From assembly GCA_018228705.1 (NCBI GenBank), contig CP073694.1, positions 310,001-374,000 on the forward strand: a stretch of 64,000 bases of DNA, written 5' to 3'. The notes under the pieces were generated by a model. That model saw only the letters and a program-made list of their open reading frames with translations, was not told the origin of the DNA and did no database searches. This stretch comes from Dysosmobacter sp. Marseille-Q4140 (lineage in GTDB: Bacteria; Bacillota; Clostridia; Oscillospirales; Oscillospiraceae). Positions within the stretch are counted from its first letter, which is position 1, and every line of letters starts with the position of its first letter. This document shows positions 40,989 through 58,215 of the stretch, piece by piece. The position numbers and the translations under genes are program-made.

Positions 40989-41000
40989 GCAAACGTTTGA
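40989..41000. promoter_or_regulatory. LacI-type operator upstream of the PiT promoters
   Basis: GCAAACGTTTGA matches 11 of 12 bases of the palindrome GCAAACGTTTGC found at the lacI-linked operons. It lies about 45 bp upstream of the first -35 box. Confidence 0.6.
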
Positions 41001-41111: not shown

Positions 41112-41190
41112 AAAATAAGTAAACGCAAGGCAGATCCCTAAAATAAATTTGAAATCGTTTGCGCTATTTGCGGGAAAGGAAGTGCCTACC

Positions 41191-42210
41191 GTGCCGTCGG
41201 AGATCTCCTTTATTCTGCTGACCGGAATGATTTTCGTCTTTACCTATGTCAACGGATTCCATGACGGCTGCAATGTGGTGGCCACGCTGATCGCAAGCCG
41301 CTCCATGCGCCCTAACCCCGCTCTGGCCTGGGCCGCAGTGGTGGAATTTCTCTCTCCCTTTGCCATTCTGGTTGTCGGCTCCAGTGTCTCCAACACCATT
41401 CAGAAACTGGTGGGCGAAGCCTTCTACACCGACGCCGGCAGCAGAGACACCGCCCTGGCATTCATCACGGCGGGCATCCTGGCGGCGATCCTCTGGAATC
41501 TGACCACCTGGCGCTTCGGCATCCCCGCGTCCTCATCCCACGCGCTGATCGGCGGTGTGGTGGGCGCCGGTATCGCCGCTTTCGGCACCGGCGCCATCTC
41601 CTGGTCCTATTTCTGGGGGAAGGTCGTTCTGATGATCTTCCTGACCCCTGCGGTCAGCTTCGTGCTGGGGTTTTTGATTTTGAAGCTGCTGCTGGCCCTG
41701 ACCCTTCACGCGGGAGTTGGCGTCAACAAATTCTTTACATACGCACAGTGGCTGAACATGACCTTTCTGGCCTTTAACCACTCCTTCAACGACTCTCAAA
41801 AATCCATCGGCATCGTGCTGATCCTCATGGGGATCTACGGCGGTGCGGAGGCCAGTATTCCCATTTGGGCCATTGTCTGTGCGGCTCTGTGCCTGTCCTG
41901 CGGAATCGCCTTCGGCGGTTTCAAGATCATTAAGACGGTGGGCACCGGTATCTATAAGGTCCAGCCCATCCACTCCTTTGCCTCGCAGCTGACGGCCGGT
42001 ACCGTAATCCTGACCTCCTCCCTGCTGGGCGCGCCGGTATCCGCCAGCCAGATCGTCTCCTCCTCCATCATGGGCGTGGGCGCGGCGGAGCGCTACAAGG
42101 CCGTCCGCTGGAACGTGGCCGGCAAGATCCTGCTGTCCTGGTTCATCACTATCCCCATCGCCGGCTCTCTGGGCGCGTTACTGTTTTTCCTGTTCTCTGT
42201 GATTTACTGA
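41191..42210 (+). CDS. PiT family inorganic phosphate transporter
   Basis: 339 residues with about ten membrane segments. The two inverted PiT signatures are YVNGFHDGCNVVATLI (near residue 19) and FLAFNHSFNDSQKSIGIV (near residue 190), and a SSSHALIGGVVGAG repeat is present. PiT proteins move phosphate, usually as a metal-phosphate complex, with protons or sodium. The start was placed at GTG 41191, preceded by GGAAAGGAAG; longer frames would add hydrophilic residues not usual in the family. The DUF47 partner gene follows at 19 bp. A LacI-type operator upstream links it to the adjacent phosphate-compound locus. Confidence 0.9.
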   Translation: MPSEISFILLTGMIFVFTYVNGFHDGCNVVATLIASRSMRPNPALAWAAVVEFLSPFAILVVGSSVSNTIQKLVGEAFYTDAGSRDTALAFITAGILAAILWNLTTWRFGIPASSSHALIGGVVGAGIAAFGTGAISWSYFWGKVVLMIFLTPAVSFVLGFLILKLLLALTLHAGVGVNKFFTYAQWLNMTFLAFNHSFNDSQKSIGIVLILMGIYGGAEASIPIWAIVCAALCLSCGIAFGGFKIIKTVGTGIYKVQPIHSFASQLTAGTVILTSSLLGAPVSASQIVSSSIMGVGAAERYKAVRWNVAGKILLSWFITIPIAGSLGALLFFLFSVIY

Positions 42211-42923: not shown

Positions 42924-43928
42924 TTACTGCAGCGAGCGGCAGGTGCCCCGTTTGACAAGACTGGGTGTCATAATCTGATGGACATATCCCTGGGTCCCCC
43001 GCTCGATTTTGTCCAGCAGCATATCCACCGCCTGAACCGCCATGGCCCGCATGGGCTGCTCAATAGTGGTCAAATCAATCCGGGGCAAAGCCGTGGCGGG
43101 AATATTATCGAAGCCAATCAGGCTCAGCCGCTCAGGAATGGCAATATGCAGCTCGTCCGCAGCCTTCAGAAGGCCCAGGGCGTTGGAATCTGTGGAGGCA
43201 AAAATGGCGGTATAGTCAATGGGTTGGGAGAACAGCTCCTTGGCCATTTGATAGCCATTTTCGATCGAGGAACGGGAATACTCGCTGTTGAAAAACCGCT
43301 GCTTGAGTCCCATCTCCTGACAGGCGCGGATATACCCTTCCGCCCGCAGCTGATGCGTGGTGGAGTGGCGGCGGCCAAAGTACAGAATATCCCGATGCCC
43401 CAGGGAATAGAGGTATTCCATCCCAAGAAAGGTGCCAAGACTATTGTCCACGGATACATAACTTTGGGGCTGGTCCCGCAGGTTCTCGCTGAGAAACACT
43501 GTAGGGACCTGGTCGGTATAGGCCTGGATGTTCTCGTAGGTCTTGGGGCTCTGGGGCACGATCAGGATGCCGTCCACCTTCCGGCCCAGCAGCAGCTTCA
43601 CCACCGTCTTTTCCTGTTTGAGATCCGGACCGGAGTTGCACAGCATGATGTTGTATCCGTGGGTACGGGCGCTCATCTCCGCATAGTGGGCCAACTGAGA
43701 CATGAATTCATTGTCGATGGACGGCATTACCAGGCCGATCAGGTCCGTTTTCTTCATCACCATGGACCGGGCCACATAGTTGGTGGTATAGCCCATCTCA
43801 TCGCACAGCTTGATGATTCGTTCCCGGGTATCACTTCCGATCTGCGAACTGCCGGACAGCGCCCTGGATACCGTGGCATAGGAGACTCCGGCAGCCCTGG
43901 CCACGTCCTTCAAAGTCACACTTTTCAT
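42924..43928 (-). CDS. LacI family transcriptional regulator
   Basis: 334 residues. The HTH is residues 3-25 (TLKDVARAAGVSYATVSRAL), and the hinge region YTTNYVARSMVMKKT follows. The effector domain (from about residue 60) has the periplasmic-binding-protein fold, with TDLIGLVMPSIDN, KVDGILIVPQSP and FASTDSNALGLLKAAD. ATG 43928 was chosen because the HTH starts directly there; the upstream extension has no conserved residues. GCAAACGTTT-type sites lie in its own leader and in front of the two flanking operons, so it is the likely repressor of the 44-54 kb locus. The inducer is presumably a sugar or sugar phosphate. Confidence 0.92.
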   Translation of the reverse strand: MKSVTLKDVARAAGVSYATVSRALSGSSQIGSDTRERIIKLCDEMGYTTNYVARSMVMKKTDLIGLVMPSIDNEFMSQLAHYAEMSARTHGYNIMLCNSGPDLKQEKTVVKLLLGRKVDGILIVPQSPKTYENIQAYTDQVPTVFLSENLRDQPQSYVSVDNSLGTFLGMEYLYSLGHRDILYFGRRHSTTHQLRAEGYIRACQEMGLKQRFFNSEYSRSSIENGYQMAKELFSQPIDYTAIFASTDSNALGLLKAADELHIAIPERLSLIGFDNIPATALPRIDLTTIEQPMRAMAVQAVDMLLDKIERGTQGYVHQIMTPSLVKRGTCRSLQ

Positions 43929-43968
43929 CGCCCATCGTCCTTTTCGAAGCGGCTGCGGTGCAATCGGC

Positions 43969-43981
43969 CGCAAACGTTTCC
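43969..43981. promoter_or_regulatory. LacI-type operator in the regulator's own leader
   Basis: CGCAAACGTTTCC matches the palindrome with one base changed in the right half. It lies about 45 bp upstream of the lacI-type ATG and downstream of its promoter, which would give autoregulation. Confidence 0.65.
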
Positions 43982-44181: not shown

Positions 44182-44193
44182 GCAAACGTTTGC
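44182..44193. promoter_or_regulatory. LacI-type operator of the HAD-mutase operon
   Basis: Perfect palindrome GCAAACGTTTGC, at about +9 to +20 of the predicted transcript, suited to repression. Confidence 0.78.
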
Positions 44194-44414: not shown

Positions 44415-45149
44415 ATGACACCCGATATCACGACCATCTTTTTTGACGTTGGCAATACCCTTCGTATCGTTCTGAAGGACCAGGCGTTCATCGACAAGGC
44501 GGAAGCGGACCTGATGGAGCTGATCCAGACCAAGGAGACCCACGACGAGCTCTTCGCCAAGTTGGAGGAGCGGTGGAAGGCCTACCGCAAGCTATCCAAG
44601 TCCACACTGCTGGACGCCTCCGAGGGCGAGCTGTGGACCCAGTACATGCTGCCGGACTACGACACCAACATGATCTTCGCCAACGCGCCCCGGCTGACCC
44701 GCCTGTGGCGGGACCACGATGGCCGCCGGGTGGCCCGGCCCGACGCCGTGGCGACCCTGAAGGAGCTGTGCGCCAGAGGCTACACCCTGGGCATTATCGC
44801 CAACACCGTCACCGAGACCGAGATCCCCGACTGGATGGCCGCCGACGGCGTGGCCCAGTACTTCAAAACCACCATCCTCTCCTCCAAGGTCCGCCTGCGC
44901 AAGCCGGATCCGGCCATCTATCACCTGGCCTGCCGCTGTATCGGCTCCCCCGAGGCCCAGTGCGCCTATGTGGGCGATAACCCGGTCCGTGACGTGGAGG
45001 GCACCCAGGCCGCGGGCTTCGCCATGATGATCCGCATCGATGAGCCGGATACTCTGAACATGGAGAAGGCCACCGGTAAGGAGTTCACCCCCGACCATGT
45101 GATCACCAGTCTGAGCCAGCTGCTGGATATCTTTCCTGCCAGAAATTGA
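44415..45149 (+). CDS. HAD family hydrolase 1 of the locus
   Basis: 244 residues, HAD fold with a helical cap inserted after motif I. Motif I is FFDVGNTLRI: the nucleophile Asp is present but the usual second Asp (D-x-D) is Gly. Motif II lies in LGIIANT, motif III Lys in RLRKPDPAIYH and motif IV in YVGDNPVRDVEG. HADs with a D-x-G loop include active sugar phosphatases such as YihX, so loss of activity should not be assumed. AGGAGGAG precedes the ATG. It shares a 36-nt identical stretch with the third HAD gene, suggesting recent duplication or conversion. It opens the operon with two more HADs and a permuted mutase. Confidence 0.88.
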   Translation: MTPDITTIFFDVGNTLRIVLKDQAFIDKAEADLMELIQTKETHDELFAKLEERWKAYRKLSKSTLLDASEGELWTQYMLPDYDTNMIFANAPRLTRLWRDHDGRRVARPDAVATLKELCARGYTLGIIANTVTETEIPDWMAADGVAQYFKTTILSSKVRLRKPDPAIYHLACRCIGSPEAQCAYVGDNPVRDVEGTQAAGFAMMIRIDEPDTLNMEKATGKEFTPDHVITSLSQLLDIFPARN

Positions 45150-45163
45150 GGAGGCGTCCTGAT

Positions 45164-45901
45164 ATGGAACTGAAGAAGCGTTACAAGGCGGTATTTTTTG
45201 ACCTGGGCGGCACGCTGCGCATCGCCCTCAACGACGAGCCCTACATGCGCCACGCCCGCCGCAAAATGGCGGAGATCGCCGGCACGGACCTGCCCTATGA
45301 GGAGTTCTACCAGCTGGTGGAGGAGCGCTACGAGCCCTACCGCAAGTGGGCGCTGGGCGAATTCAAGGAGTCCGGCGACGAGGAGCTGTGGTGCAAGTGG
45401 CTGCTTCCGGACTATGACCCGGTCCGCATCGCCCAGGTCTGTCACGAGCTGTCCTTCCAGTACCGGCAGACCAAGGGCCGCCGGGTGGTAGTGGACGGCG
45501 GTGAGGAGGTCCTCCGTACCCTCCATGAGCGGGGTTACCGCCTGGGCATCATCTCCAACCTGATCGGCGAGAACGAGGTGCCCGACTGGCTGGAGGAGGA
45601 CGGTCTGGACCAGTACTTCTCCAGCGTGGTTCTCTCCTCCGTGTGCCATCTGCGCAAGCCGGGCGCCGAGATCTACCGCATCGCTTCCCGGGAGCTGGGC
45701 GTGGATCTGGCGGACTGCGTGTCCGTGGCCGACAATGTCAAGCGGGACCTGACCGGCGCCGTGGAGGCCGGTGTGGGCTGCAACATCATCTTCCGCTCGC
45801 CCGAGAAGAAGCATCCGGTGGATGTCGGCGGACCCGTCCGCCCCGACGCGGTGATCTCCGATTTCCGGGAGATCCTGGATCTTCTGCCCGCCTTGAACTG
45901 A
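45164..45901 (+). CDS. HAD family hydrolase 2 of the locus
   Basis: 245 residues, paralogous to its neighbours. Motif I is FFDLGGTLRI, motif II LGIISNL, motif III LRKPGAEIY and motif IV VSVADNVKRDLTGA. In motif IV, Gly of GDN is replaced by Ala (ADN), a mild change. The cap contains FQYRQTKGRRVVVDGG, shared with HAD 3. The start is at 45164, since GAGGAGG overlaps the stop of HAD 1 at proper spacing. A 13-bp hairpin and two smaller ones follow before HAD 3. Confidence 0.87.
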   Translation: MELKKRYKAVFFDLGGTLRIALNDEPYMRHARRKMAEIAGTDLPYEEFYQLVEERYEPYRKWALGEFKESGDEELWCKWLLPDYDPVRIAQVCHELSFQYRQTKGRRVVVDGGEEVLRTLHERGYRLGIISNLIGENEVPDWLEEDGLDQYFSSVVLSSVCHLRKPGAEIYRIASRELGVDLADCVSVADNVKRDLTGAVEAGVGCNIIFRSPEKKHPVDVGGPVRPDAVISDFREILDLLPALN

Positions 45902-45907
45902 GACGGT

Positions 45908-45940
45908 TCAGCCTGCCGAAGCGCTTTTTCGGCAGGCTGA
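45908..45940 (+). terminator. Intra-operon hairpin between HAD 2 and HAD 3
   Basis: A perfect 13-bp stem (TCAGCCTGCCGAA, 45908-45920, with 45928-45940) lacks a T-run after it. It more likely stabilises upstream mRNA or lowers downstream expression than ends transcription. A smaller CCTCCC/GGGAGG-type hairpin lies near 45990-46010. Confidence 0.6.
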
Positions 45941-46056
45941 GCAAGCTTTCAGCGCTTCTTGGTTTCTGAAACCGCGATCTTTTGCCCCTCCCGCCGGAGG
46001 GAGCCCGGCCTGCCGCCCGCCGAAAAGGGACGGCATCAGCAAAGGAGGCTGGAGCT

Positions 46057-46833
46057 ATGAATACTGATATCCGCTTCATCTTTTTCGACCTGGGCGGCAC
46101 CTTCCGGGTCATCAAGGAGGACCCCGCCTATCTGGCCGCCGCCAAGACCAAAATCGCGGAGCTGTGCGGCGTGCAGGTAGAGGACCCCTGCGCCTGGTTC
46201 GACACCGTGATCGACAAGCGCTACGACAAGTACCGGGAGTGGGCCCTGAAATTCATGTGCGAGGCGCCGGAGGAGGTCCTTTGGACCCGCTGGCTGGCCT
46301 ACGACTGCGACCGGGACCTGATCTTGAAAAACGCCGGGGAGCTGACCTATCAGTACCGCCAGACCAAGGGCATCCGCACCGTGGTGGACGGCGGCGCCGA
46401 GACCGTGAAGGAGCTGTGCGCCAGAGGCTACACCCTGGGCATCATCTCTGACCTGGTGGGCCGCCGGGAGGTGAACGAGTGGCTGGACGCCGACGGCCTG
46501 CGGCCCTACTTTAAGACCGTCCAGCAGTCCTCCATCACCTACGTCCGCAAGCCCGGGCCCGCCATCTACTACTATGCCATGGATGAGGTCCAGGCCCAGC
46601 CGGAAAACTGCTGCTACGTGGGCGACAACCTGAACCGGGACATCGTGGGCGCCAAGGCCTGCGCCTTCGGCATGACCGTGACGGTGCAGTACGACCCCAA
46701 GAAGCCCCTGAAGCTGACGGAGGAAAACATGCCCGACGCCAAGGTCTACACCTTCCCGCAGCTGCTGGACATCTTCCCCGCCCGGGGCCATGTGGCCGTC
46801 GACAAGCTGGTCCTTCCCACCGACGGGCAGTAA
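46057..46833 (+). CDS. HAD family hydrolase 3 of the locus
   Basis: 258 residues. Motif I is FFDLGGTFRV (D-x-G variant), motif II LGIISDL, motif III YVRKPGPAIYYY and motif IV YVGDNLNRDIVGA. ATG 46057 follows AAAGGAGG at 8 nt; no start further upstream has a ribosome site. The sequence is closest to HAD 1 and HAD 2 in the window. A divergent fourth copy lies at 48605-49375 on the other strand. Substrate unknown; a phosphomonoesterase acting on an imported or mutase-derived phosphate ester is the working guess. Confidence 0.87.
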   Translation: MNTDIRFIFFDLGGTFRVIKEDPAYLAAAKTKIAELCGVQVEDPCAWFDTVIDKRYDKYREWALKFMCEAPEEVLWTRWLAYDCDRDLILKNAGELTYQYRQTKGIRTVVDGGAETVKELCARGYTLGIISDLVGRREVNEWLDADGLRPYFKTVQQSSITYVRKPGPAIYYYAMDEVQAQPENCCYVGDNLNRDIVGAKACAFGMTVTVQYDPKKPLKLTEENMPDAKVYTFPQLLDIFPARGHVAVDKLVLPTDGQ

Positions 46834-46872
46834 AGCCCTTTGACTTCACATCTATATCAAGGAGGTACACCC

Positions 46873-48441
46873 ATGTCTCAGATCAACCATGGCGGCGCCC
46901 AGCTGGCGGAGGCCGTCAAGCGGGCATATGAACTGGGCCAGGACGACTATCATCTGGAGCCCATGGTCCTGACGGAGAACGGCGTCCCTGTGGGCCGCAT
47001 CCAGGACAACGACGCTGTCATCTTCTGCTGCCGCCGGGGCGAGCGGGAGATCGAGCTGACGGAGATGTTCACCGACAAGGACTTCAGCGCCGTGGACATC
47101 CACAAGCTCAACAACCTGGATTTCTCCATTCTGACCCTGTATCACGACAAGTTCAAGGACCTGCCCATCGCCTTTGCGCCGGAGCACGTGGAAAAGCCCC
47201 TGGCCCAGGTCCTCTCCGAGGCCGGCAAGACCCAGCTTCACTGCGCCGAGTCCGAGAAGTTCGCCCATGTGACCTTCTTCTTCAACGGCGGCGAGAACAA
47301 CCCCTTCCCCGGTGAGGACGACATCTGCATCCCTTCCCCCAAGGGCATCGACTTTGACCAGCAGCCGGAGCTGTCCCTGCCCAAGGTCACCGACACCCTG
47401 ACCGACGCCCTGGGCAAGTATGACTTCATCGTCACCAACTTCGCCAACGGCGACGTCATCGGCCACACCCAGAACACCGCCGCTAAGCTGGAGGCCTGCG
47501 CCCATGTGAGCCGGGCCCTGGAAAAGGTGGTGGGCGACGCCCTGTCCAAGGGCTATGTGGTGGCTGTCACCGCCGATCACGGCAACATCGAAAAGCTCTA
47601 TACTGCCGCAGGCAAGCCCGACGGCGCCCACACCACCAACCTGGTGGCCTTCGTCATGATGGACCCCGCCGATCCCACGCCCATCCAGCTGCGGGACGGC
47701 GCCCTCAGCGACGTGGCCCCCACGGTGCTGGACGTCATGGGCATCCCCCAGCCTGCTGTCATGACCGGCAAGTCCCTGGCGGAGGGCCGTGACTGGGGCA
47801 AGGACCGCAAGATGCTCCTCATCATCTGCGACGGCTGGGGCCTGGGCCCCGGCGACGAGGGCGACGCCATCCACATCTCCGACACACCCTACTGGGACAG
47901 CCTGCTGGCGGGTCAGTCCTGGTCCAAGCTGCACGCCTCCGGTGAGCACGTGGGCCTGGGCGCCGGAAAGGCCGGCAACTCCGAGGCGGGCCACTCCAAC
48001 CTGGGCGCCGGCCGCTGCGTCATGCAGGACGACGTCCGCCTGGACGCCGCCGTCAAGGACGGCAGCTTCCAGCGCAACCCGGTGTTCCTGGAGGCCGTGG
48101 AGCACGTGAAGAAGAACCACTCCTCCCTGCACCTGCTGGCTTACCTCACCTACAAGTCCTCCCACGGCTGCATCGACTATCCCCTGTCCATCTGCGCCAT
48201 GGCCAAGGAGCAGGGCCTGGAGCAGGTCTACTTCCACATCATCTTCGACGGCCGCTCCACGGAGCCCGGCTCCGCTCCCAAGCTGCTGGGCGAGCTGGAC
48301 CAGAAGCTGGAGGAGATCGGCCTGGGCCTGGTGGTGGACGGCGCCGGCCGCGGCGTGGTCCTGGACCGGGACAAGAATTACGACAAGGTCAAGCGGGGCT
48401 ACGACGCCATGGTGGACGGCACCGGCACGCAGTACGCATAA
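46873..48441 (+). CDS. Circularly permuted cofactor-independent phosphoglycerate mutase-like protein
   Basis: 522 residues. The order of blocks is rotated relative to GpmI. Residues 1-305 match the GpmI C-terminal part: R55/R58 (canonical R261/R264) in CRRGERE, K129 (K336), D194/H198 in NGDVIGHT, D235/H236 in TADHGN, H253 in AHTTN. After a short linker, residues 315-522 match the GpmI N-terminus: D320 in ICDGWG, nucleophile S370 in GNSEAGH, H431, R461, R493 and R499. Nearly all metal and substrate ligands remain; canonical D154 is Ser462 (DGRS). It ends in YDAMVDGTGTQYA, the sequence that precedes residue 1 in the canonical order. AAGGAGG precedes ATG 46873. It is the last gene of the operon with three HADs. 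Activity could be true mutase or a related phosphotransfer. Confidence 0.9.
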   Translation: MSQINHGGAQLAEAVKRAYELGQDDYHLEPMVLTENGVPVGRIQDNDAVIFCCRRGEREIELTEMFTDKDFSAVDIHKLNNLDFSILTLYHDKFKDLPIAFAPEHVEKPLAQVLSEAGKTQLHCAESEKFAHVTFFFNGGENNPFPGEDDICIPSPKGIDFDQQPELSLPKVTDTLTDALGKYDFIVTNFANGDVIGHTQNTAAKLEACAHVSRALEKVVGDALSKGYVVAVTADHGNIEKLYTAAGKPDGAHTTNLVAFVMMDPADPTPIQLRDGALSDVAPTVLDVMGIPQPAVMTGKSLAEGRDWGKDRKMLLIICDGWGLGPGDEGDAIHISDTPYWDSLLAGQSWSKLHASGEHVGLGAGKAGNSEAGHSNLGAGRCVMQDDVRLDAAVKDGSFQRNPVFLEAVEHVKKNHSSLHLLAYLTYKSSHGCIDYPLSICAMAKEQGLEQVYFHIIFDGRSTEPGSAPKLLGELDQKLEEIGLGLVVDGAGRGVVLDRDKNYDKVKRGYDAMVDGTGTQYA

Positions 48442-48471: not shown

Positions 48472-48530
48472 ACAGCAGAACCCCGGAGGAGCCACAGCTC
48501 CTCCGGGGTTCTGCTGTTCCCGTTTTTTCT
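48472..48530 (+). terminator. Terminator of the HAD-mutase operon
   Basis: A perfect 21-bp stem (ACAGCAGAACCCCGGAGGAG plus one, 48472-48492, with 48497-48517), loop CACA, then TCCCGTTTTTT. Confidence 0.93.
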
Positions 48531-48604: not shown

Positions 48605-49375
48605 TCAGGCCGGGCGGACACCCTCTCCCTGCTTGAGATCCCGCAGGATGGTATAGACCTCATAGATGTCCTGGATGGAATAGGTGGGCTTCACCGTGTC
48701 GGGGATGTCCGTATCCCGGGAAGCCGTCAGGAAGGAGTGGATGTGGAAGGTCATCCCAAAGCCCATGTTCTGGGGGCCGATCACATCCCGGGAGAAGGTG
48801 TCGCCCACATAGGCGCACTCCGCCGGGTCGGACTGGACCTGGTACAGGGAGACCTTGAAGATGTTGGGGTCAGGCTTACGGTAGCCGGTCACGGAGGAGA
48901 GGGTCACATCCTGGAAATACTCCCGGATACCGTATTCCTTCAGGATCTCGTAGACCTGATACAAGCTGGCGGTGTTGCTGATGACGCCCAGCTTCATGCC
49001 CAGGCCCTTCAATCCCTCCAGCATCTCCTTGACCCGGGGCCGCAGGCTCCGGTAATAGTGGGTCACTTCCCACATATGGGCCAGCTCCTCTGCGAAGGGC
49101 TGGACCGTCTCGAAATCCAGGCCGAAGTCCGTCAGCACATAATCGCCCCAGATCTCCTCCGGCTTCAGCTCCCGCTGAGAGGGATTGCGGTACGCGGCGT
49201 ACCGGTCCCAGCCCTCGGTCAGCATCCGGAGAGCGGTGTCCTCGTCCACCCGGACGTCCACACCGTGGCTGCGCAGGATCCGGAGGACGCCCTGGGCCGC
49301 GGCCATCTTGCTCGCCGCGTCGGAGTAGATATCCTCCAGGGTCCCTCCCATATCAAACAATACGGTGTTGATCAT
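48605..49375 (-). CDS. HAD family hydrolase 4 of the locus
   Basis: 256 residues. Motif I is VLFDMGGTLED, again D-x-G; motif II LGVISNTASL, motif III GYRKPDPNIFK, motif IV YVGDTFSRDVIG (GDT rather than GDN). It is more distant from HAD 1-3 than they are from each other. The start overlaps the preceding membrane-protein gene by 4 nt (ATGA). It is the last gene of the leftward transporter operon, so an uptake system and a hydrolase are made from one transcript. Confidence 0.88.
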   Translation of the reverse strand: MINTVLFDMGGTLEDIYSDAASKMAAAQGVLRILRSHGVDVRVDEDTALRMLTEGWDRYAAYRNPSQRELKPEEIWGDYVLTDFGLDFETVQPFAEELAHMWEVTHYYRSLRPRVKEMLEGLKGLGMKLGVISNTASLYQVYEILKEYGIREYFQDVTLSSVTGYRKPDPNIFKVSLYQVQSDPAECAYVGDTFSRDVIGPQNMGFGMTFHIHSFLTASRDTDIPDTVKPTYSIQDIYEVYTILRDLKQGEGVRPA

Positions 49376-49923
49376 TGTCTCACAGTCCTTTCGATTCTCC
49401 TGTTGTCAAGGATGGGCCTGCGCCGCTGATACCGGCGGTACAGCCACAGCGACAGTCCCCCTCCCAGGAGGATGGGTGCCGGTACGAACAGCCCAAAGAA
49501 CTGCAGGAACAGCATTTGCGCCTGGAAATCTCCGCCCAGGATGATCAGCATAGCCACGAGACACGCAACAGCCAGTGCCGCCAGCCACAGGTAAGCAGAC
49601 AGAAGCATCCGCTTTTCCGGGAGGAACCAGGCAAAACAACACACAGCCGTCCCCACCAGGGTAGGTACGGCCGCCTCCACGAAGTTAATCCATGCCGTAG
49701 GGGCCCCTTCCAGCATCGGATGAAGGAGGTTGATCAAGCTCACATAGGCTGCGGCGTAAATCACCACAAACACCATGCTCAGGCAGAAGGAATACAACAG
49801 CAGCGTACTTTTCACTTTGCCGTCCTTGGTGAACAGGAACGCACCCCAAAAGCGGTCTCCTCGCTCCTTCCAGACTCTGTTTCGCTCCTCCTGCCGCAGC
49901 TGTTCCAGTTTTCGATTCTGCAC
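49372..49923 (-). CDS. Small membrane protein in the transporter operon, unknown function
   Basis: 183 residues. A charged N-terminus (about 1-35) is followed by four hydrophobic segments (about 40-62, 80-98, 106-128 and 134-160) and a basic C-terminal tail (RRYQRRRPILDNRR). I do not recognise the family. It lies between the binding-protein gene and HAD 4, with coupled translation to HAD 4, and may help the importer or the hydrolase at the membrane. Confidence 0.65.
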   Translation of the reverse strand: MQNRKLEQLRQEERNRVWKERGDRFWGAFLFTKDGKVKSTLLLYSFCLSMVFVVIYAAAYVSLINLLHPMLEGAPTAWINFVEAAVPTLVGTAVCCFAWFLPEKRMLLSAYLWLAALAVACLVAMLIILGGDFQAQMLFLQFFGLFVPAPILLGGGLSLWLYRRYQRRRPILDNRRIERTVRQ

Positions 49924-52563: not shown

Positions 52564-54399
52564 TCAGCCCCAGCTCTTGCCGATATCGGCGCCGAACCGG
52601 TTGGCGATGATATAGCACACCAGGATGAACAGCAGCACAACGACGGAAATGGCGTCGGCCATCTGGTTGTAACCGTCCTGGGAATACGTGAAGGCCAGGT
52701 AGGACATGGTCCGGGTAGTGGGAGTCATCATGATGATGATCAGGTCCAGCTCCTTGGCAATGGAGATGAAGGTCAGCATGAAGCCGGAGATGAAGCCGTT
52801 CTTCGCCAGAGGCACGATAATGGAGGCCATCCGTTTCCAGAAGCTGGCACCGGCAATGTCTGCTGCCTCCTCCAGCTCCACACTGATGGACAACATGTTG
52901 GCCGTACCGGATTTACTGGCAAAGGGGAAGTGCTTGACCACGGAGGTCAGAACGATCAGGGTAAAGGTGCCGTACAGGGAGGGGATCAGGCCGCCGAAAT
53001 GAGGCACGGAGAACATGGCGAAGTACATGGTGGAGAAGGCGATGCCGCTCATCAGGTAGGGCACGAACACCAACTGCTCCGTCAGGTTGCCGTACCACTT
53101 GCCGCGGCCGCGGGAACTGATGTAGCCCAGGAACTGGCCGCAAATGGCGGTGATGATAGAGGCGATCAGGGTCAGGCGGACCGTGTTCCACAGAGCGCTC
53201 AGGAACTCCTTGCTGCGGAAGATGCCGGGCAGGTTGATGTACTTGTCAGCCTCGCCCACGGTGCCGATCCAGTTGTAAAGCGTCAGGTTGTCGAGGCCGT
53301 AGCCGTTGCCGGTGGTAACCTGGAAGGTCTCCATGATCAGCACGAACATGGGCATTACCATGGCCAGGAACAGGAACACCACCAGGAAGGCCATCAGGGG
53401 AGTCTTGGCCTTGCCCAGAGGCATCAGGGTGTGCCGGCCGCCCTTGCCGCCCACGGTGGCATAGGACTTGCGGACGCCCACCACTCTCTGGTTGGAGAAG
53501 ATGATGGCCGCAGCCAGGCCCACCAGCACCAGGCTCATGGCATAGCCGACGCCCTGGGGACCCTGGTCGATGAACACACGCATCTTGGTGGCCAGGGTGT
53601 AGAAACCGATGCGGTTGCCCAGGTTGGCCGCCACACCGTATGTACCGATGGACTTACTGATGGTCATGATCATGGCCGACAGGATGGACGGCATGATCAG
53701 GGGCAGGGTGATGTGGCGCAGGATCTGGGGCTTGCTGGCGCCCTGGATCTCGCCCATCTCCTCCAGCTCGGAGTTGATGGAGCGAAGCGCGCCGGAAACC
53801 ATGATATAGGAAAATGCGTAGTAGTGCATGGACATGCAGAGGATGATGGCGATGGGTCCATAGGCCAGCCAGTCAGGGATGGGGAGTCCCATGCCGGCCA
53901 GGAATCCATCGGCGCCGCTGGTGGCATTGCGGAACACGGCCAGCCAGCTCAAAGCCTTGGTCCAGGAGGGGATCATGTAGGGGATGATCACCAGCATGCT
54001 CAGGGCCTTCTTGCCGGGGATGTCGGTACGGACCATCAGCCATGCCAGAACGGAGCCCAGCGGCACAGAGATGACCACCACGCACGCGCCGATGATCAGC
54101 GAGTTGAGCAGAGGCTCCCACAAAACGGCCTTTGACATGTTGCTGGCCAGCATGTACGTCCAGTAGTAAAGGGTGAAGTCGCCCACCTGGGCGCCTTCAA
54201 TTCTCCGCCGCATGACCTCGGCCTGGGCCGCGGTGAACGTGGTGGAGATCATGGTCAGCAGGGGGATGATGATCAGGCAGAACAAGATCACCAGGCTCAC
54301 CAGCACGACCATGTTGAACGGGTTCGTCACCACGTTCAAGATCAGGTTCTTCAGCCGCTTCTTGGTCAGCGGCTTTTTGGGGAGGGCTTTCTTTGACAC
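52564..54399 (-). CDS. ABC transporter permease, two fused permease domains
   Basis: 611 residues, about twelve membrane segments. Two EAA loops, which contact the ATPase, are visible: EEMGEIQGASKPQILRHITL (near residue 240) and LEEAADIAGASFWKRMASII (near residue 515). Such fused permeases occur in ThiP, FbpB, AfuB and phosphonate importers. Translation starts at GTG 54399 after AAAGAGGTG. It is the first gene of a leftward operon (permease, ATPase, binding protein, membrane protein, HAD 4) behind a perfect LacI-type operator. Confidence 0.92.
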   Translation of the reverse strand: MSKKALPKKPLTKKRLKNLILNVVTNPFNMVVLVSLVILFCLIIIPLLTMISTTFTAAQAEVMRRRIEGAQVGDFTLYYWTYMLASNMSKAVLWEPLLNSLIIGACVVVISVPLGSVLAWLMVRTDIPGKKALSMLVIIPYMIPSWTKALSWLAVFRNATSGADGFLAGMGLPIPDWLAYGPIAIILCMSMHYYAFSYIMVSGALRSINSELEEMGEIQGASKPQILRHITLPLIMPSILSAMIMTISKSIGTYGVAANLGNRIGFYTLATKMRVFIDQGPQGVGYAMSLVLVGLAAAIIFSNQRVVGVRKSYATVGGKGGRHTLMPLGKAKTPLMAFLVVFLFLAMVMPMFVLIMETFQVTTGNGYGLDNLTLYNWIGTVGEADKYINLPGIFRSKEFLSALWNTVRLTLIASIITAICGQFLGYISSRGRGKWYGNLTEQLVFVPYLMSGIAFSTMYFAMFSVPHFGGLIPSLYGTFTLIVLTSVVKHFPFASKSGTANMLSISVELEEAADIAGASFWKRMASIIVPLAKNGFISGFMLTFISIAKELDLIIIMMTPTTRTMSYLAFTYSQDGYNQMADAISVVVLLFILVCYIIANRFGADIGKSWG

Positions 54400-54734: not shown

Positions 54735-56471
54735 TTACGATGAAAACTGCGCTTTATACAGCTTTGCGTAAATTCCTCCCTGCTTCAGCAGCTGATCATG
54801 GGTCCCCTGCTCCGCCACGCGGCCGCCGTCCAGCACCAGGATCTGATCCGCCTTGCGGACCGTCACCAGCCGGTGGGCGATGACAAAGCAGGTTCTCCCC
54901 TGCCGCAGCCGCTCCAGCGCGGCGCGGATCTGCTCCTCCGTCTCCGTGTCCACGTCGGAGGTAGCCTCGTCCATAATGACCACATCGGCGTTGGAGAGGA
55001 AGCACCGGGCGATGGCCAGCAGCTGCCGCTGGCCCTTGGAGATGCCGGCACCCTCGTCGGTTAGGACAGTATCGTAGCCGTCCGGCAGGGACATGAGAAA
55101 CCGATGGATACAGGCGGCCTTGGCAGCCTCCACGATCTGCTCCCGGGTGGCGCCCGGCGTGCCGTAGGCGATGTTCTCGGCAATGGTGCCGCCGAAGAGC
55201 CAGGTGTCCTGGAGCACCATGGCCAGGCGGCGGCGCAGGCCGTCCCGGGCGTAGGATTCCAGCGGCCGGCCGTCCACGGTGATATCGCCTCCCTGCCGCT
55301 GGTAGAATCGCAGCAGCAGCGACACCAGGGTGGTCTTGCCCGCCCCGGTGGTACCCACCACCGCCACCATGCTGCCGGCAGGGACGTCGGCGGTGAAATC
55401 CCGCAGCACCGGCCGGTCCGGGTCGTAGCCGAACTCCACGTGCCGGAAGGAAATGGCTCCCTCCAGATGCGCCGGGTCCAGAGCCCCCGGCGGATCCGCC
55501 GGCTCCGGCTCCTGGTCCAGCAGGTCCAGCACCCGCTCCGCCGCCGCCACGGAGGCCTGGAGGTCGCTGAGCAGGTTGGCGGCCTCCCGGATGGGACCGG
55601 AGAACTTCCGGGAGTACAGCACAAAGGAAGTGAGGCTGCCGATGGAGATGCCCCCTCCGATGAACAGCAGTCCGCCGAACACACTGATGGCCGCCAGGGA
55701 CAGGTTGTTGATGAAGTTGACGGAGGGGCCCAGGGAGGCGCTGGCACAGTCCGCCCGGTAGTAGGCCCGGGAGGCCTCGTCGTTGCGTTCCTCGAACTGA
55801 CGCAGGTCCTCGGCCTCCACGCCATAGGCGCGGATGGCCCGCTGGCGGCCGATGCGCTCCTCAGCAAAGCCATTGAGCGCGCCCAACTCCCTGGACCGCA
55901 GCCGGAACAGGGGGTGGATCCGCCGCATCTGGAGCCGGGTCAGCACTGCGGACAGCGGCACCGTCACGAAGAACACCACCGCCAGCCGGGGCGAGAGCAC
56001 CAGAAGCATCACAAAGGACCCAGCCACCGTCAGCAGGCTGGTGCAGATCTGCAAAAGGTCTGTGGAGAGGGTGGCGTTGACCGTGTCTACATCGTAGCAG
56101 ATGCGGCTGATGAGATCCCCGGCGGGGTGGGTGTCGAAATACTGGACCGGCAGTTCGCTCATCCGGTGGAAGGCGGCCTTCCGCAGGTCGTAGGACACGG
56201 CCTGGCCCACCTGGATCAGCTTGGCGGAGACCAGATAGTTCAGCCCCGCCGCCAGGGCGCAGCAGACCAGCATCCCGGCGCAGTTGCGCAGCACAGTGGG
56301 AAAGTCCACGCCTCCCGGCTCCGTACCCACGGCGTCCAGCGCCCAGCCGGACAGCAGCGGCACCGTCAGCGTCAGCAGGTTGGCGCACACCATCAGCACC
56401 GTGATGCCCGCAAGGGTCAGAAGGTAGGGGCGCAGAAAGCGGCCCAGCCGCAGCAGCAGATGCTTTTTCAT
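54735..56471 (-). CDS. ABC exporter subunit B (intact Walker B)
   Basis: 578 residues: six membrane helices (1-310) then an ATPase domain. Walker A is VGTTGAGKTTLVSLLL, Walker B VVIMDEATSDVDTET with the catalytic Glu, and the switch His is in FVIAHRLVTV. The signature, however, is degenerate (ISKGQRQ rather than LSGGQ). This pairs with the upstream subunit, which has the opposite defects. The 4-nt overlap (ATGA) with that gene supports a heterodimer of the BmrCD/LmrCD type. Likely export of drugs, lipids or peptides. Confidence 0.92.
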   Translation of the reverse strand: MKKHLLLRLGRFLRPYLLTLAGITVLMVCANLLTLTVPLLSGWALDAVGTEPGGVDFPTVLRNCAGMLVCCALAAGLNYLVSAKLIQVGQAVSYDLRKAAFHRMSELPVQYFDTHPAGDLISRICYDVDTVNATLSTDLLQICTSLLTVAGSFVMLLVLSPRLAVVFFVTVPLSAVLTRLQMRRIHPLFRLRSRELGALNGFAEERIGRQRAIRAYGVEAEDLRQFEERNDEASRAYYRADCASASLGPSVNFINNLSLAAISVFGGLLFIGGGISIGSLTSFVLYSRKFSGPIREAANLLSDLQASVAAAERVLDLLDQEPEPADPPGALDPAHLEGAISFRHVEFGYDPDRPVLRDFTADVPAGSMVAVVGTTGAGKTTLVSLLLRFYQRQGGDITVDGRPLESYARDGLRRRLAMVLQDTWLFGGTIAENIAYGTPGATREQIVEAAKAACIHRFLMSLPDGYDTVLTDEGAGISKGQRQLLAIARCFLSNADVVIMDEATSDVDTETEEQIRAALERLRQGRTCFVIAHRLVTVRKADQILVLDGGRVAEQGTHDQLLKQGGIYAKLYKAQFSS

Positions 56472-58183
56472 ACCGCTCCCTCCCCCATCTGCAGCTCCGC
56501 CATCTGGCGGTAGCGCGCGCAGGTCTCCAGCAGCTCACGGTGGCTGCCCTGGGCGTCGATGCGTCCGCTCTCCAGCACCAGGATGCGGTCCGCCTCCCGG
56601 ACGGAGGAGACCCGCTCGGAGATCACCACCAGCGTCACGCCCGGCAGGTCCCGGCGCAGCGCCGCCCGCAGGGCCGCCGCCGTCCGGTAGTCCAGGGCGC
56701 TGTCGGCGCTGTCCAGAATCAGAATCTCCGGATCACCCGCCAGGGCCCGGGCAATCAGCAGCCGCTGCCGCTGGCCGCCGGAGAGGTTGGCGCCCCGCAG
56801 GTCCACGCGGGTGTCCAGCCCCTGGGGCAGCGTCTCGATGAACTCCCAGGCCTGGGCGGTGCGGGCCGCGGCCTCCACCGCCTCCCGGCTGAGGCCCCGC
56901 AGGAAGGAGATGTTCTCATACACGCTGCCGGCGATCAGGGTGTCCCCCTGGAACGCCACGCCGAAGCGCGTCTGCAATTCCCGGCGTTCCTGGGTCCGGA
57001 CATCCTTTCCGCCGACCCAGACCACGCCGCCGTCGGCGTCGTACAGCCGCAGCAGCAGAGAGATCAGGGTGGTCTTGCCGCTGCCGGTGGGCCCCAGGAT
57101 GCCCAGCATCTGTCCCTTCTCCAGGGTGAAGGACGCCTGCTCCAGGTCCGGCTCCACGCCCAGGTAGGAGAAGGTGGCGTTCTCCATGCCCAGGATGCCG
57201 GGCCGCACCTCCTCCGCCTCCGCAGGCTCCACCGTCTGTTCCAGAGGGGCCTGGAGGATCTCCCGGATGCGGCGGGCGGAGGCGGCGCCCTTGCTGATGC
57301 GCACAAAGACCTTGGCGATGCCCAGCGTGGCGCTCTGGATCAGAGTGAAATAGGTCAAAAAGGCCACGATCTGGCCCCGCTGCATCCGTCCGGCGTCCAC
57401 CCACAAAGCGCCCACCAGCACCACCAGCGTCAGTCCCGTGTTCAGCAGGAAGTCCGTGATGGGATTGGTCATGGCCATGACCCAGCCAGCCTGCTCCTCC
57501 GCCCGGCGGGAGGCATGGTTGGCGGTCTCGAACCGCTCCCGCTCTCGGCCCTGGCAGGCCAGGGCCTTGATGACCCGGACGCCGGAGGCATTCTCCCGCA
57601 GGATGCGGACCACCGTGTCCACCGCCTGCTGGGCCTGGGTGTAGAAGGGGATGCCCCGGCGGGTCACCAGGGTGATGGTCAGGAAGGTCAGCAGGCTCAC
57701 CGCCAGCTGGACCAAGGCCAGCACCGGCTGCTGGAGGAAGGTCAGCACCAGTCCGCCCAGCACCAGCATGGGCGCCCGGATGCCGCCCCGCTGGACCTTG
57801 TCGAACATCTGGTGGACGTTGTAGGTGTCGTTGGTCAGCCGGGACACCATGGAGGAGGCGGAGAACCGGTCCATCTGGGCGCAGGAAAGGGCCTGTACCC
57901 GGCGGTACAGATCCCGGCGCAGCTCCCGGGTCACCTCCATGGAGACCCAGGCGGCCATGCGGTTGGCGGTGATGTTGCAGGCGGCGGCAGCAAAGGCCAG
58001 CACGCCCATCAGAGCGCCGGTCCGCCAGATGGCCGGCAGATCCCGGGCAGGCACCAGGTCATCGATGACCGCGGCCAGCAGCAGCGGCAGCACCAGCTCT
58101 AAGATCGCGGCGGTGAACTTGATGGTGCCCCCCACGGCCACCCGGCCCGTATAGGGCTTCAGATACCCCAAAACCACTTTCAC
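56468..58183 (-). CDS. ABC exporter subunit A (degenerate ATP site)
   Basis: 571 residues: six helices then an ATPase domain. Walker A GPTGSGKTTLISLLL and signature NLSGGQRQRLLIARAL are normal. The Walker B end reads LILDSADSALD, with Ser in place of the catalytic Glu, and the switch loop reads VISERVSSV, with Glu in place of His. So its own ATP site cannot hydrolyse, while its signature completes the partner's site. The GTG start at 58183 has a weak ribosome site. A CAAACGTTTACG site lies in its leader, close to the LacI-type operator. Confidence 0.92.
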   Translation of the reverse strand: MKVVLGYLKPYTGRVAVGGTIKFTAAILELVLPLLLAAVIDDLVPARDLPAIWRTGALMGVLAFAAAACNITANRMAAWVSMEVTRELRRDLYRRVQALSCAQMDRFSASSMVSRLTNDTYNVHQMFDKVQRGGIRAPMLVLGGLVLTFLQQPVLALVQLAVSLLTFLTITLVTRRGIPFYTQAQQAVDTVVRILRENASGVRVIKALACQGRERERFETANHASRRAEEQAGWVMAMTNPITDFLLNTGLTLVVLVGALWVDAGRMQRGQIVAFLTYFTLIQSATLGIAKVFVRISKGAASARRIREILQAPLEQTVEPAEAEEVRPGILGMENATFSYLGVEPDLEQASFTLEKGQMLGILGPTGSGKTTLISLLLRLYDADGGVVWVGGKDVRTQERRELQTRFGVAFQGDTLIAGSVYENISFLRGLSREAVEAAARTAQAWEFIETLPQGLDTRVDLRGANLSGGQRQRLLIARALAGDPEILILDSADSALDYRTAAALRAALRRDLPGVTLVVISERVSSVREADRILVLESGRIDAQGSHRELLETCARYRQMAELQMGEGAV

Positions 58184-58201: not shown

Positions 58202-58215
58202 CTCAAACGTTTACG
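58202..58215. promoter_or_regulatory. Degenerate LacI-type site at the exporter operon
   Basis: CTCAAACGTTTACG keeps the CAAACGTTT core. Its centre is about 19.5 bp past the predicted -10 box, near the geometry of the two strong sites. Confidence 0.45.

What the first reader, a model, noticed from the sequence alone, without database searches (positions are those of the whole stretch)
46873..48441. Circularly permuted phosphoglycerate mutase
The protein carries every block of the 510-residue cofactor-independent mutase but in rotated order: canonical residues from about 210 to the end come first, then a ten-residue linker, then canonical residues 1 to about 210. The cut falls in the linker before the AVKRAYELGQ-like segment inside the transferase domain, and the protein ends in YDAMVDGTGTQYA, which normally leads into that segment. 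The metal ligands and phosphoserine nucleophile (S370) are all present. Of the substrate contacts, only the canonical Asp154 is changed (Ser462). I know of no described permuted GpmI. It sits in a regulated operon with three HAD hydrolases, so its substrate may not be 3-phosphoglycerate.
Basis: partly seen in the sequence, partly recalled or inferred. Interest (0 to 1): 0.93.

Follow-up and report, generated by a model that had tools for sequence, protein, structure and literature searches.

The report
Rotated phosphoglycerate mutase relative in bacteria
A well-known sugar-burning enzyme exists here with its two halves swapped end to end, in a whole family of bacterial relatives with an altered active site, sitting beside import and phosphate-removal genes, so it has probably taken on a new job with phosphorylated nutrients.

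Summary
The gene at 46873-48441 encodes a circularly permuted GpmI: canonical residues 218-508 first, a ten-residue linker, then canonical 5-213. It is no assembly error: 49 of 57 fetched loci have this order, one in a closed chromosome. The permuted proteins put in trees form one side of a supported branch, with a group A (the window's) and a group B (Chloroflexota where named).

Metal ligands, Ser nucleophile and eight of nine known substrate contacts are invariant in group A. Asp154 is lost (Ser in A, Gly in B) and the neighbourhood is remodelled. Twelve of twelve hosts tested keep another phosphoglycerate mutase.

AAACGTTT occurs five times in the window against 0.18 expected, before this operon, an ABC importer, a phosphate transporter and an exporter-like pair. 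Best reading: a Mn-dependent phosphatase or phosphotransferase for an imported phosphorylated compound. Inositol phosphates are the best single guess (iol genes in 14 loci's operons), but five held-out loci lack them. Searches listed no published permuted GpmI.

The parts
46873..48441 (+). circularly permuted GpmI paralogue (group A), 522 aa
46909..47778 (+). residues 13-302 = canonical GpmI 218-508 (rest of transferase domain and C-terminal phosphatase part)
   Evidence: alignment to 1EJJ
47779..47808 (+). ten-residue linker (303-312) joining old C-terminus to old N-terminus
   Evidence: gap between the two aligned stretches
47809..48435 (+). residues 313-521 = canonical GpmI 5-213 (N-terminal phosphatase part and first part of transferase domain)
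   Evidence: alignment to 1EJJ
47980..47982 (+). codon of Ser370 = canonical Ser62 nucleophile
   Evidence: invariant in 50 of 50 permuted and 66 of 66 canonical proteins
48256..48258 (+). codon of Ser462 = canonical Asp154 position
   Evidence: Ser in 50 of 50 group A; Asp in 66 of 66 canonical
46859..46866 (+). ribosome binding site AAGGAGGT in front of ATG 46873
   Evidence: read
44415..45149 (+). HAD hydrolase 1 of the operon
   Evidence: PF00702
45146..45901 (+). HAD hydrolase 2 of the operon
   Evidence: PF00702
45982..46833 (+). HAD hydrolase 3 of the operon (start may lie further in)
   Evidence: PF00702
48605..49375 (-). HAD hydrolase 4, convergent, last ORF of the importer run
   Evidence: PF00702; order
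42924..43973 (-). LacI-family regulator, divergent
   Evidence: PF00356 and PF13377
44137..44166 (+). promoter-like TTGACA-18-TAAAAT (11 of 12)
   Evidence: 4 such sites found, 0.9 expected; consensus match only
43972..43979 (.). AAACGTTT operator-like site 1 of the pair before LacI/HAD
44184..44191 (.). AAACGTTT site 2 (core of perfect GCAAACGTTTGC) behind the promoter
48472..48517 (+). intrinsic-terminator-like hairpin after the permuted gene (20 pairs counted)
   Evidence: the scan as a whole found no more such sites than shuffles do (3 against 3.4), the stem length is what marks this one
40991..40998 (.). AAACGTTT site 158 bases before the phosphate transporter gene
41149..42210 (+). Pit/PHO4 phosphate transporter
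   Evidence: PF01384
42230..42829 (+). PhoU_div (DUF47) partner
   Evidence: PF01865
54522..54529 (.). AAACGTTT site (core of GCAAACGTTTGC) 123 bases before the importer permease gene
52564..54399 (-). ABC importer permease (611 aa)
   Evidence: tblastn 40% to the L039 permease, which is PF00528
51383..52504 (-). ABC importer ATPase
   Evidence: tblastn 47% to the L039 ATPase, which is PF00005
50015..51334 (-). solute-binding lipoprotein of the importer
   Evidence: PF01547 at 28 bits, cut-off 26
49372..49923 (-). 183-aa ORF of the importer run, no Pfam family at E 0.001
58205..58212 (.). AAACGTTT site 22 bases before the ABC exporter-like pair
54735..58183 (-). two ABC-exporter-like ORFs (578 and 571 aa)
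   Evidence: ORFs, grouped with ABC ATPases; not searched against family models

Best explanation
A GpmI gene underwent one ancient circular permutation (supported: same cut point, one branch; trees unrooted). The chain now starts inside the transferase domain, runs through the phosphatase domain in one piece, and ends in the transferase domain, so the split and the uninterrupted domain have changed roles (inferred from the alignment to 1EJJ). The bimetal site and Ser370 are kept, so the enzyme should still form a phosphoserine with Mn2+ (inferred from conservation). Asp154 is lost and three basic residues are fixed next to active-site residues in the sequence, so it most likely no longer interconverts 2- and 3-phosphoglycerate (inferred). 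It dephosphorylates, or moves a phosphate on, a different, bulkier or more anionic compound that the neighbouring ABC importer brings in and that the co-operonic HADs also process; the released phosphate is handled by the co-regulated Pit transporter (inferred). A LacI-type repressor senses the compound or its product (inferred). Inositol phosphates are my best single guess for the substrate, at about 0.3.
For: Order and homology. Same order in 49 of 57 loci; 3 more are fragments, 5 are canonical. One branch: 50 permuted against 66 canonical, SH-aLRT 100; 53 (23 A, 30 B) against 35, 100; 53 against 44, 98. Catalytic residues 50 of 50; Asp154 0 of 50 against 66 of 66; R54, K366, K428 fixed. Confident model matching 1o98. 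Separate PGM in 12 of 12 hosts: canonical GpmI in 8, GpmA in the other 4. Recurring neighbours LacI, HAD, permease, ATPase, SBP. Operator-like site 5 times against 0.18 expected, 0 of 100 shuffles as many, recurring at the same genes in relatives. Inositol: iol genes divergent in 6 Anaerolineae loci, IolG within a UxaE-type gene run in 2 more, IolG directly downstream in 6 Oscillospiraceae loci.
Against: No activity, ligand or binding was measured. Eight of nine substrate contacts are kept, four of them arginines R185, R191, R261, R264 (said to hold the carboxylate; recalled), so a phosphoglycerate-like substrate is not excluded. Inositol: 5 of 5 further group-A loci have the core operon without iol genes within about 8-10 kb, apart from a 29% partial IolG-like hit at the contig start of L162; IolG is not clearly commoner in group-A genomes (6 of 9) than in group B (9 of 14) or others (19 of 40); G003 (C. 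asparagiforme) and G009 gave no IolE (E 1e-15) or IolG (E 1e-40) match. Group B has the permutation without the operon in the 6 loci looked at. The HADs have Gly for the second Asp of motif I (116 of 117, one gap), so their activity is uncertain.
Confidence: 0.68

Rival explanations
1. It is an inositol-phosphate enzyme: the operon imports inositol (poly)phosphates such as phytate breakdown products, HADs and the permuted GpmI strip or move phosphates, and the iol genes burn the inositol.
For: Iol genes divergent in 6 Anaerolineae loci; a second gene set with UxaE in 4 loci, with IolG in the same run in the 2 that I extended; IolG over its curated cut-off directly behind the permuted gene in Oscillospiraceae, 3 of 3 tested by model, 6 by tblastn; a HAD fused to an AP_endonuc_2 barrel; several HADs per operon; phosphate transporter with the same operator-like site; added basic residues.
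Against: Held-out loci without iol genes, no clear genome-level enrichment, hosts without IolE/IolG. Searches listed no paper on a bacterial transporter for inositol phosphates, and the passages seen of PMC12482443 and PMC7618129 name none.
Confidence: 0.3
2. It is still a phosphoglycerate mutase, or a phosphoglycerate phosphatase, used in a special setting, and the permutation is neutral.
For: Ser62, H123, R153, R185, R191, R261, R264 and K336 equivalents kept in 50 of 50; TIGR01307 over cut-off.
Against: Asp154 absent in the permuted proteins read at that position; NF003897 scores 363.6 against a cut-off of 862; hosts have another PGM; operon context.
Confidence: 0.15
3. It handles another imported sugar-phosphate or sugar-acid phosphate (AfuABC-like diet).
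For: The binding protein of the Erysipelotrichaceae locus L025 matches 4r72 (AfuA by recall; E 3.7e-14) and a pyridoxal-phosphate binder (6wce), though its best matches are 6hhb and 6fjl, titled Fe3+ transport; hexonate-type genes in some loci.
Against: The L039 binding protein has only weak matches, to iron binders at best; the window's was not searched against structures.
Confidence: 0.25
4. It is a phosphonate-type transferase, like PhpG.
For: The importer permease hits 2-aminoethylphosphonate permease models; the neighbouring ApgM-like protein hits the PhpG model.
Against: The PhpG hit is far below cut-off (185 against 545) and ApgM models score much higher; the permease hits are below cut-offs.
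Confidence: 0.05
5. Assembly error or chimera.
For: Some long metagenome proteins do look like joined canonical and permuted pieces.
Against: 49 loci including a closed chromosome with two copies; one branch.
Confidence: 0.01

Closest known systems
Cofactor-independent phosphoglycerate mutase GpmI (TIGR01307; structures 1EJJ, 1O98)
   Same: Both domains, all metal ligands, Ser nucleophile and eight of nine substrate contacts; 32-45% identity per half between the window's protein and 68 canonical ones
   Different: Halves in rotated order; Asp154 lost; fixed changes next to contact residues; accessory paralogue in an import regulon
ApgM / archaeal-type iPGM (TIGR00306, PRK04135)
   Same: Same alkaline phosphatase superfamily (recalled); an ApgM-like gene lies beside the permuted gene in many Anaerolineae loci
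   Different: ApgM lacks the rotated order; weak similarity to the window's protein (24.8 bits)
AfuABC sugar-phosphate importer (PMC4546632; passages including parts of the abstract seen)
   Same: An importer first annotated as iron-binding that takes up phosphorylated compounds; the binding protein of L025 matches 4r72
   Different: The window's binding protein was not shown to belong to AfuA; no HAD or GpmI partner known to me in Afu systems (recalled)
Gut phytate use by Mitsuokella (PMC7618129; passages seen)
   Same: Inositol from phosphorylated inositol as food
   Different: There a periplasmic phytase acts before uptake; here phosphatases would act inside after import (hypothesis)

Membership tests
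GpmI (cofactor-independent phosphoglycerate mutase) | Binuclear metal site (Asp12, Asp403, His407, Asp444, His445, His462; this numbering recalled, the C. elegans set of the same residue types seen) | tested here: met
   50 of 50 permuted, 66 of 66 canonical
GpmI (cofactor-independent phosphoglycerate mutase) | Phosphoserine nucleophile Ser62 | tested here: met
   Ser370, 50 of 50
GpmI (cofactor-independent phosphoglycerate mutase) | All nine substrate contacts S62, H123, R153, D154, R185, R191, R261, R264, K336 (list from a passage of PMC3886921) | tested here: not met
   Eight kept, D154 is Ser in 50 of 50 group A and Gly in the group B proteins aligned
GpmI (cofactor-independent phosphoglycerate mutase) | Domain order: phosphatase N-part, inserted transferase domain, phosphatase C-part | tested here: not met
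   Rotated
GpmI (cofactor-independent phosphoglycerate mutase) | NCBIfam equivalog cut-offs | tested here: inconclusive
   TIGR01307 460 against 330.65: over; NF003897 363.6 against 862: under
GpmI (cofactor-independent phosphoglycerate mutase) | Serves as the cell's phosphoglycerate mutase | tested here: inconclusive
   12 of 12 host genomes hold another GpmI or GpmA over cut-off, which makes it unlikely; which one does the work needs an experiment
GpmI (cofactor-independent phosphoglycerate mutase) | 2-PG/3-PG interconversion | not testable with these tools
   needs an assay
GpmI fold | Two GpmI domains in a confident model | tested here: met
AfuA sugar-phosphate binding protein | Sequence relation of the operon's binding protein | tested here: inconclusive
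   L025 binder matches 4r72 among others; L039 binder matches iron binders weakly; window binder not searched against structures
Inositol catabolic operon | iol genes in the same or the divergent gene run | tested here: inconclusive
   14 loci yes (6), 2 more with UxaE-type genes only in the stretch held; 5 of 5 held-out loci no

The most novel reading that the evidence does not exclude
A circularly permuted GpmI has become an intracellular inositol-polyphosphate phosphatase or phosphomutase. It works in a LacI-controlled system that imports inositol phosphates whole through an ABC transporter, strips them inside the cell with several position-specific HADs plus the permuted enzyme, disposes of the phosphate through a co-regulated Pit transporter, and feeds inositol into iol pathways in gut Oscillospiraceae and in Anaerolineae. 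A mutase step could move the phosphate that ordinary phytases leave behind.
Probability: 0.22. Interest if true: 0.88.

Novelty: new variant of a known kind. Interest (0 to 1): 0.76.

Why it matters
GpmI is a textbook glycolytic enzyme. A conserved permuted family tied to the loss of one active-site residue gives a natural case of permutation that goes with a change of function, and suggests that automatic annotation (some of these proteins are named phosphoglycerate mutase) misleads pathway models of gut and environmental bacteria. If the substrate is an inositol phosphate, it would reveal an import-first route for phytate-derived food.

Tried and rejected
Assembly error: rejected by the closed chromosome and 49 loci. 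Five homologues of 719-727 aa (P0049, P0050, P0053, P0080, P0083) looked like fusion intermediates. I read three of them and the 629-aa P0086: each begins as canonical GpmI and switches in a conserved stretch into a permuted sequence, nearly the same one in P0049, P0053 and P0080 but with different canonical starts, each on one contig of 3.4-8.4 kb. I take them for assembly chimeras, not ancestors; real recombination is not excluded.

Genome-level link to inositol: tested, no clear enrichment. Held-out neighbourhood test of the inositol link: negative in 5 of 5, one with a weak partial hit. Rumen-type Chloroflexota loci (L026, L027, L029, L031, L032) have no iol hits but for 23-25% hits of the IolG query in two, though genome G008 holds IolE and IolG elsewhere. 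Phosphonate reading: models below cut-off. Folding the second half alone gave a poor model (pLDDT 58.2, 15 sequences), so I ran no fold search on it. Gene cluster 7 proved to be antisense to genes that look by eye like transketolase halves and an alcohol dehydrogenase; cluster 8 I take for antisense of HADs (inferred). Plasmid search: 44 records, all under 60% identity, five rows seen, order not checked. No permuted GpmI in print was found by searches (4 listed; 1; 15 of 30 listed; 12); I saw listings, plus passages of PMC2876114, PMC6957218 and PMC2964296, none on a permuted GpmI; most subscription papers are not in that library. Rows dropped before trees: a truncated and a duplicate canonical row (68 to 66) and one of ten extra canonical stretches in which the script found no ORF. 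Trees are of the quick kind (SH-aLRT only) and unrooted, so whether the permuted branch lies inside GpmI or beside it is open. In the samples a few genomes show GpmI only as pieces on different contigs; their order is unknown.

Full report
CHECK. The ORF starts at ATG 46873 behind a good ribosome site and gives 522 aa. Against 1EJJ the protein aligns as 313-521 to 5-213 and 13-302 to 218-508 with i-Evalues 1.6e-42 and 6.2e-63; the ten residues 303-312 lie between. TIGR01307 scores 460 bits over two stretches, cut-off 330.65. Pfam's best stretches place Metalloenzyme before iPGM_N. The claim is exact.

A FAMILY. The search for related loci returned 57 loci from genome contigs; 49 are permuted by separate search of both halves, 3 are fragments at contig ends and 5 are canonical. 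Record titles of the permuted ones include Oscillibacter, Dysosmobacter and other Oscillospiraceae, Clostridium asparagiforme (complete chromosome), an Erysipelotrichaceae bin, Firmicutes and Clostridia bins, and Flexilinea and other Anaerolineaceae or Chloroflexi bins. A genome drawn from the phylum of G005 held a further permuted protein 40% identical to the window's; a search with it brought a second group B, whose named members are Chloroflexota. In trees on rotated sequences all permuted rows are one side of a branch: 50 against 66 (SH-aLRT 100), 53 against 35 (100), 53 against 44 after adding nine further canonical rows (98). Both groups share the cut point, SSH in place of GVH, RGER, and the loss of Asp154. 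One permutation is the simplest reading; trees are unrooted.

RARE. In the class of G005, 24 of 298 gave a match; 23 are permuted by their marks, 9 of group A and 14 of group B (one of the 14, G433, in two contig pieces, so its order is not seen directly), and one is canonical.

ACTIVE SITE. The nine substrate contacts of the B. stearothermophilus enzyme are listed in PMC3886921 (passage seen). Eight are kept in 50 of 50 group-A proteins; Asp154 is Ser in 50 of 50 against Asp in 66 of 66 canonical, and Gly in the group B proteins aligned. Fixed differences next to contacts: R54 for Phe260, C53 for Asn259, E57 for Asp263, K366 four residues before the nucleophile, K428-S429-S430 before His431, G494 for Tyr186; N502 for Arg194 in 49 of 50. 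Three new basic residues and a lost tyrosine suggest a larger, more anionic ligand; I had no coordinates to confirm that they face the pocket.

NOT THE GLYCOLYTIC ENZYME, most likely. Of 12 host genomes, 8 also hold a canonical GpmI over cut-off, and the other 4, those of Anaerolineae-type loci, hold GpmA over cut-off. C. asparagiforme has two permuted copies.

NEIGHBOURS. Clustering of ORFs in 58 sequences (57 loci and the window, short and canonical ones included) puts HADs in 43, a LacI regulator in 39, and the ATPase, permease and binding protein of an ABC importer in 25, 22 and 17 (the ATPase cluster also holds exporters). Family searches name them. Anaerolineae loci add an ApgM-like protein, RpiR, a uridine-kinase-like protein and a HAD fused to an AP_endonuc_2 barrel. 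The HADs keep the Asp nucleophile (115 of 117, two gaps) but have Gly for the second Asp of motif I in 116 of 117 (one gap).

REGULON. In the window AAACGTTT occurs five times; 100 shuffles give 0.18 on average and never five. The sites lie 158 bases before Pit, at the start of lacI, between lacI and the HAD-GpmI operon just behind a promoter-like sequence, 123 bases before the importer permease, and 22 bases before an exporter-like pair. In L001-L051 plus the window I found 101 such sites; counting up to three near genes per site, 52 entries are LacI, 33 HAD, 9 Pit, 6 permease, 6 the permuted gene and 5 an ATPase or exporter; no chance level was computed there. The perfect 12-mer GCAAACGTTTGC is in only 4 of 177 loci, so the shorter core is what recurs. 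A strong hairpin follows the gene (48472-48517). So importer, phosphatases, permuted enzyme and phosphate transporter are probably co-regulated; binding was not tested.

INOSITOL, FOR AND AGAINST. For: six Anaerolineae loci have LacI with iolB, a transaldolase-like gene, iolD and IolG on the other strand, divergent from the HAD-GpmI operon; iolE lies within the fetched stretch in four. Four more have UxaE, an oxidoreductase and a LarA-like gene there; in the two that I extended IolG lies in the same run of genes, the other two were not extended. I recall a Thermotoga route from inositol through tagaturonate that would fit. In six Oscillospiraceae loci IolG follows directly (three tested against the model, all over cut-off). 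Against: none in five held-out group-A loci but for one weak partial hit; none beside the permuted gene in the rumen-type Chloroflexota, C. asparagiforme or Erysipelotrichaceae loci at more than 25% identity, with genomes G003 and G009 giving no match at all at E 1e-15 and 1e-40; and no clear genome-level enrichment: group A 6 of 9, group B 9 of 14, others 19 of 40. The core of the operon therefore does not need iol genes beside it; inositol phosphates are one candidate.

VERDICT. A real, conserved, apparently undescribed permuted relative of GpmI with a changed active site. It should work like a metal-dependent phosphoserine enzyme but fails two tested defining features of GpmI, domain order and the full contact set. 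Function is inferred at the level of an imported phosphorylated compound; the exact substrate is open.

Noticed in passing
L131:3205-4830 (-), and P0123-P0242: Second group (B) of permuted GpmI, Chloroflexota where named, with Gly at the Asp154 position; in the one locus read it lies beside what look like SecA, a histidine phosphatase and a branched-chain aminotransferase (by eye), and five more loci (L163-L167) gave no hit of the importer, HAD or iol queries. Function unknown.
   Followed up: partly
window 40991, 43972, 44184, 54522, 58205: Five AAACGTTT operator-like sites in 64 kb, all before genes of one likely LacI regulon; a pair about 210 bases apart recurs in many Oscillospiraceae loci.
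   Followed up: yes
L039:11557-12762 and L158-L162: An ApgM-like second phosphomutase (2 of the 5 loci L158-L162) and a uridine-kinase-like protein (5 of 5) ride with the permuted gene in Anaerolineae.
   Followed up: partly
window 44415-46833 and 48605-49375, and relatives: HADs of the system have Gly in place of the second Asp of motif I (116 of 117, one gap).
   Followed up: partly
P0049, P0053, P0080, P0086: Metagenome proteins that start as canonical GpmI and continue as permuted GpmI at differing switch points; probably assembly chimeras.
   Followed up: partly
L039:19630-21336: HAD domain fused to a xylose-isomerase-like TIM barrel.
   Followed up: no
window 54735-58183: ABC-exporter-like pair with an operator-like site; in L015, L016 and L022 ORFs of the same cluster lie right behind the permuted gene.
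   Followed up: no
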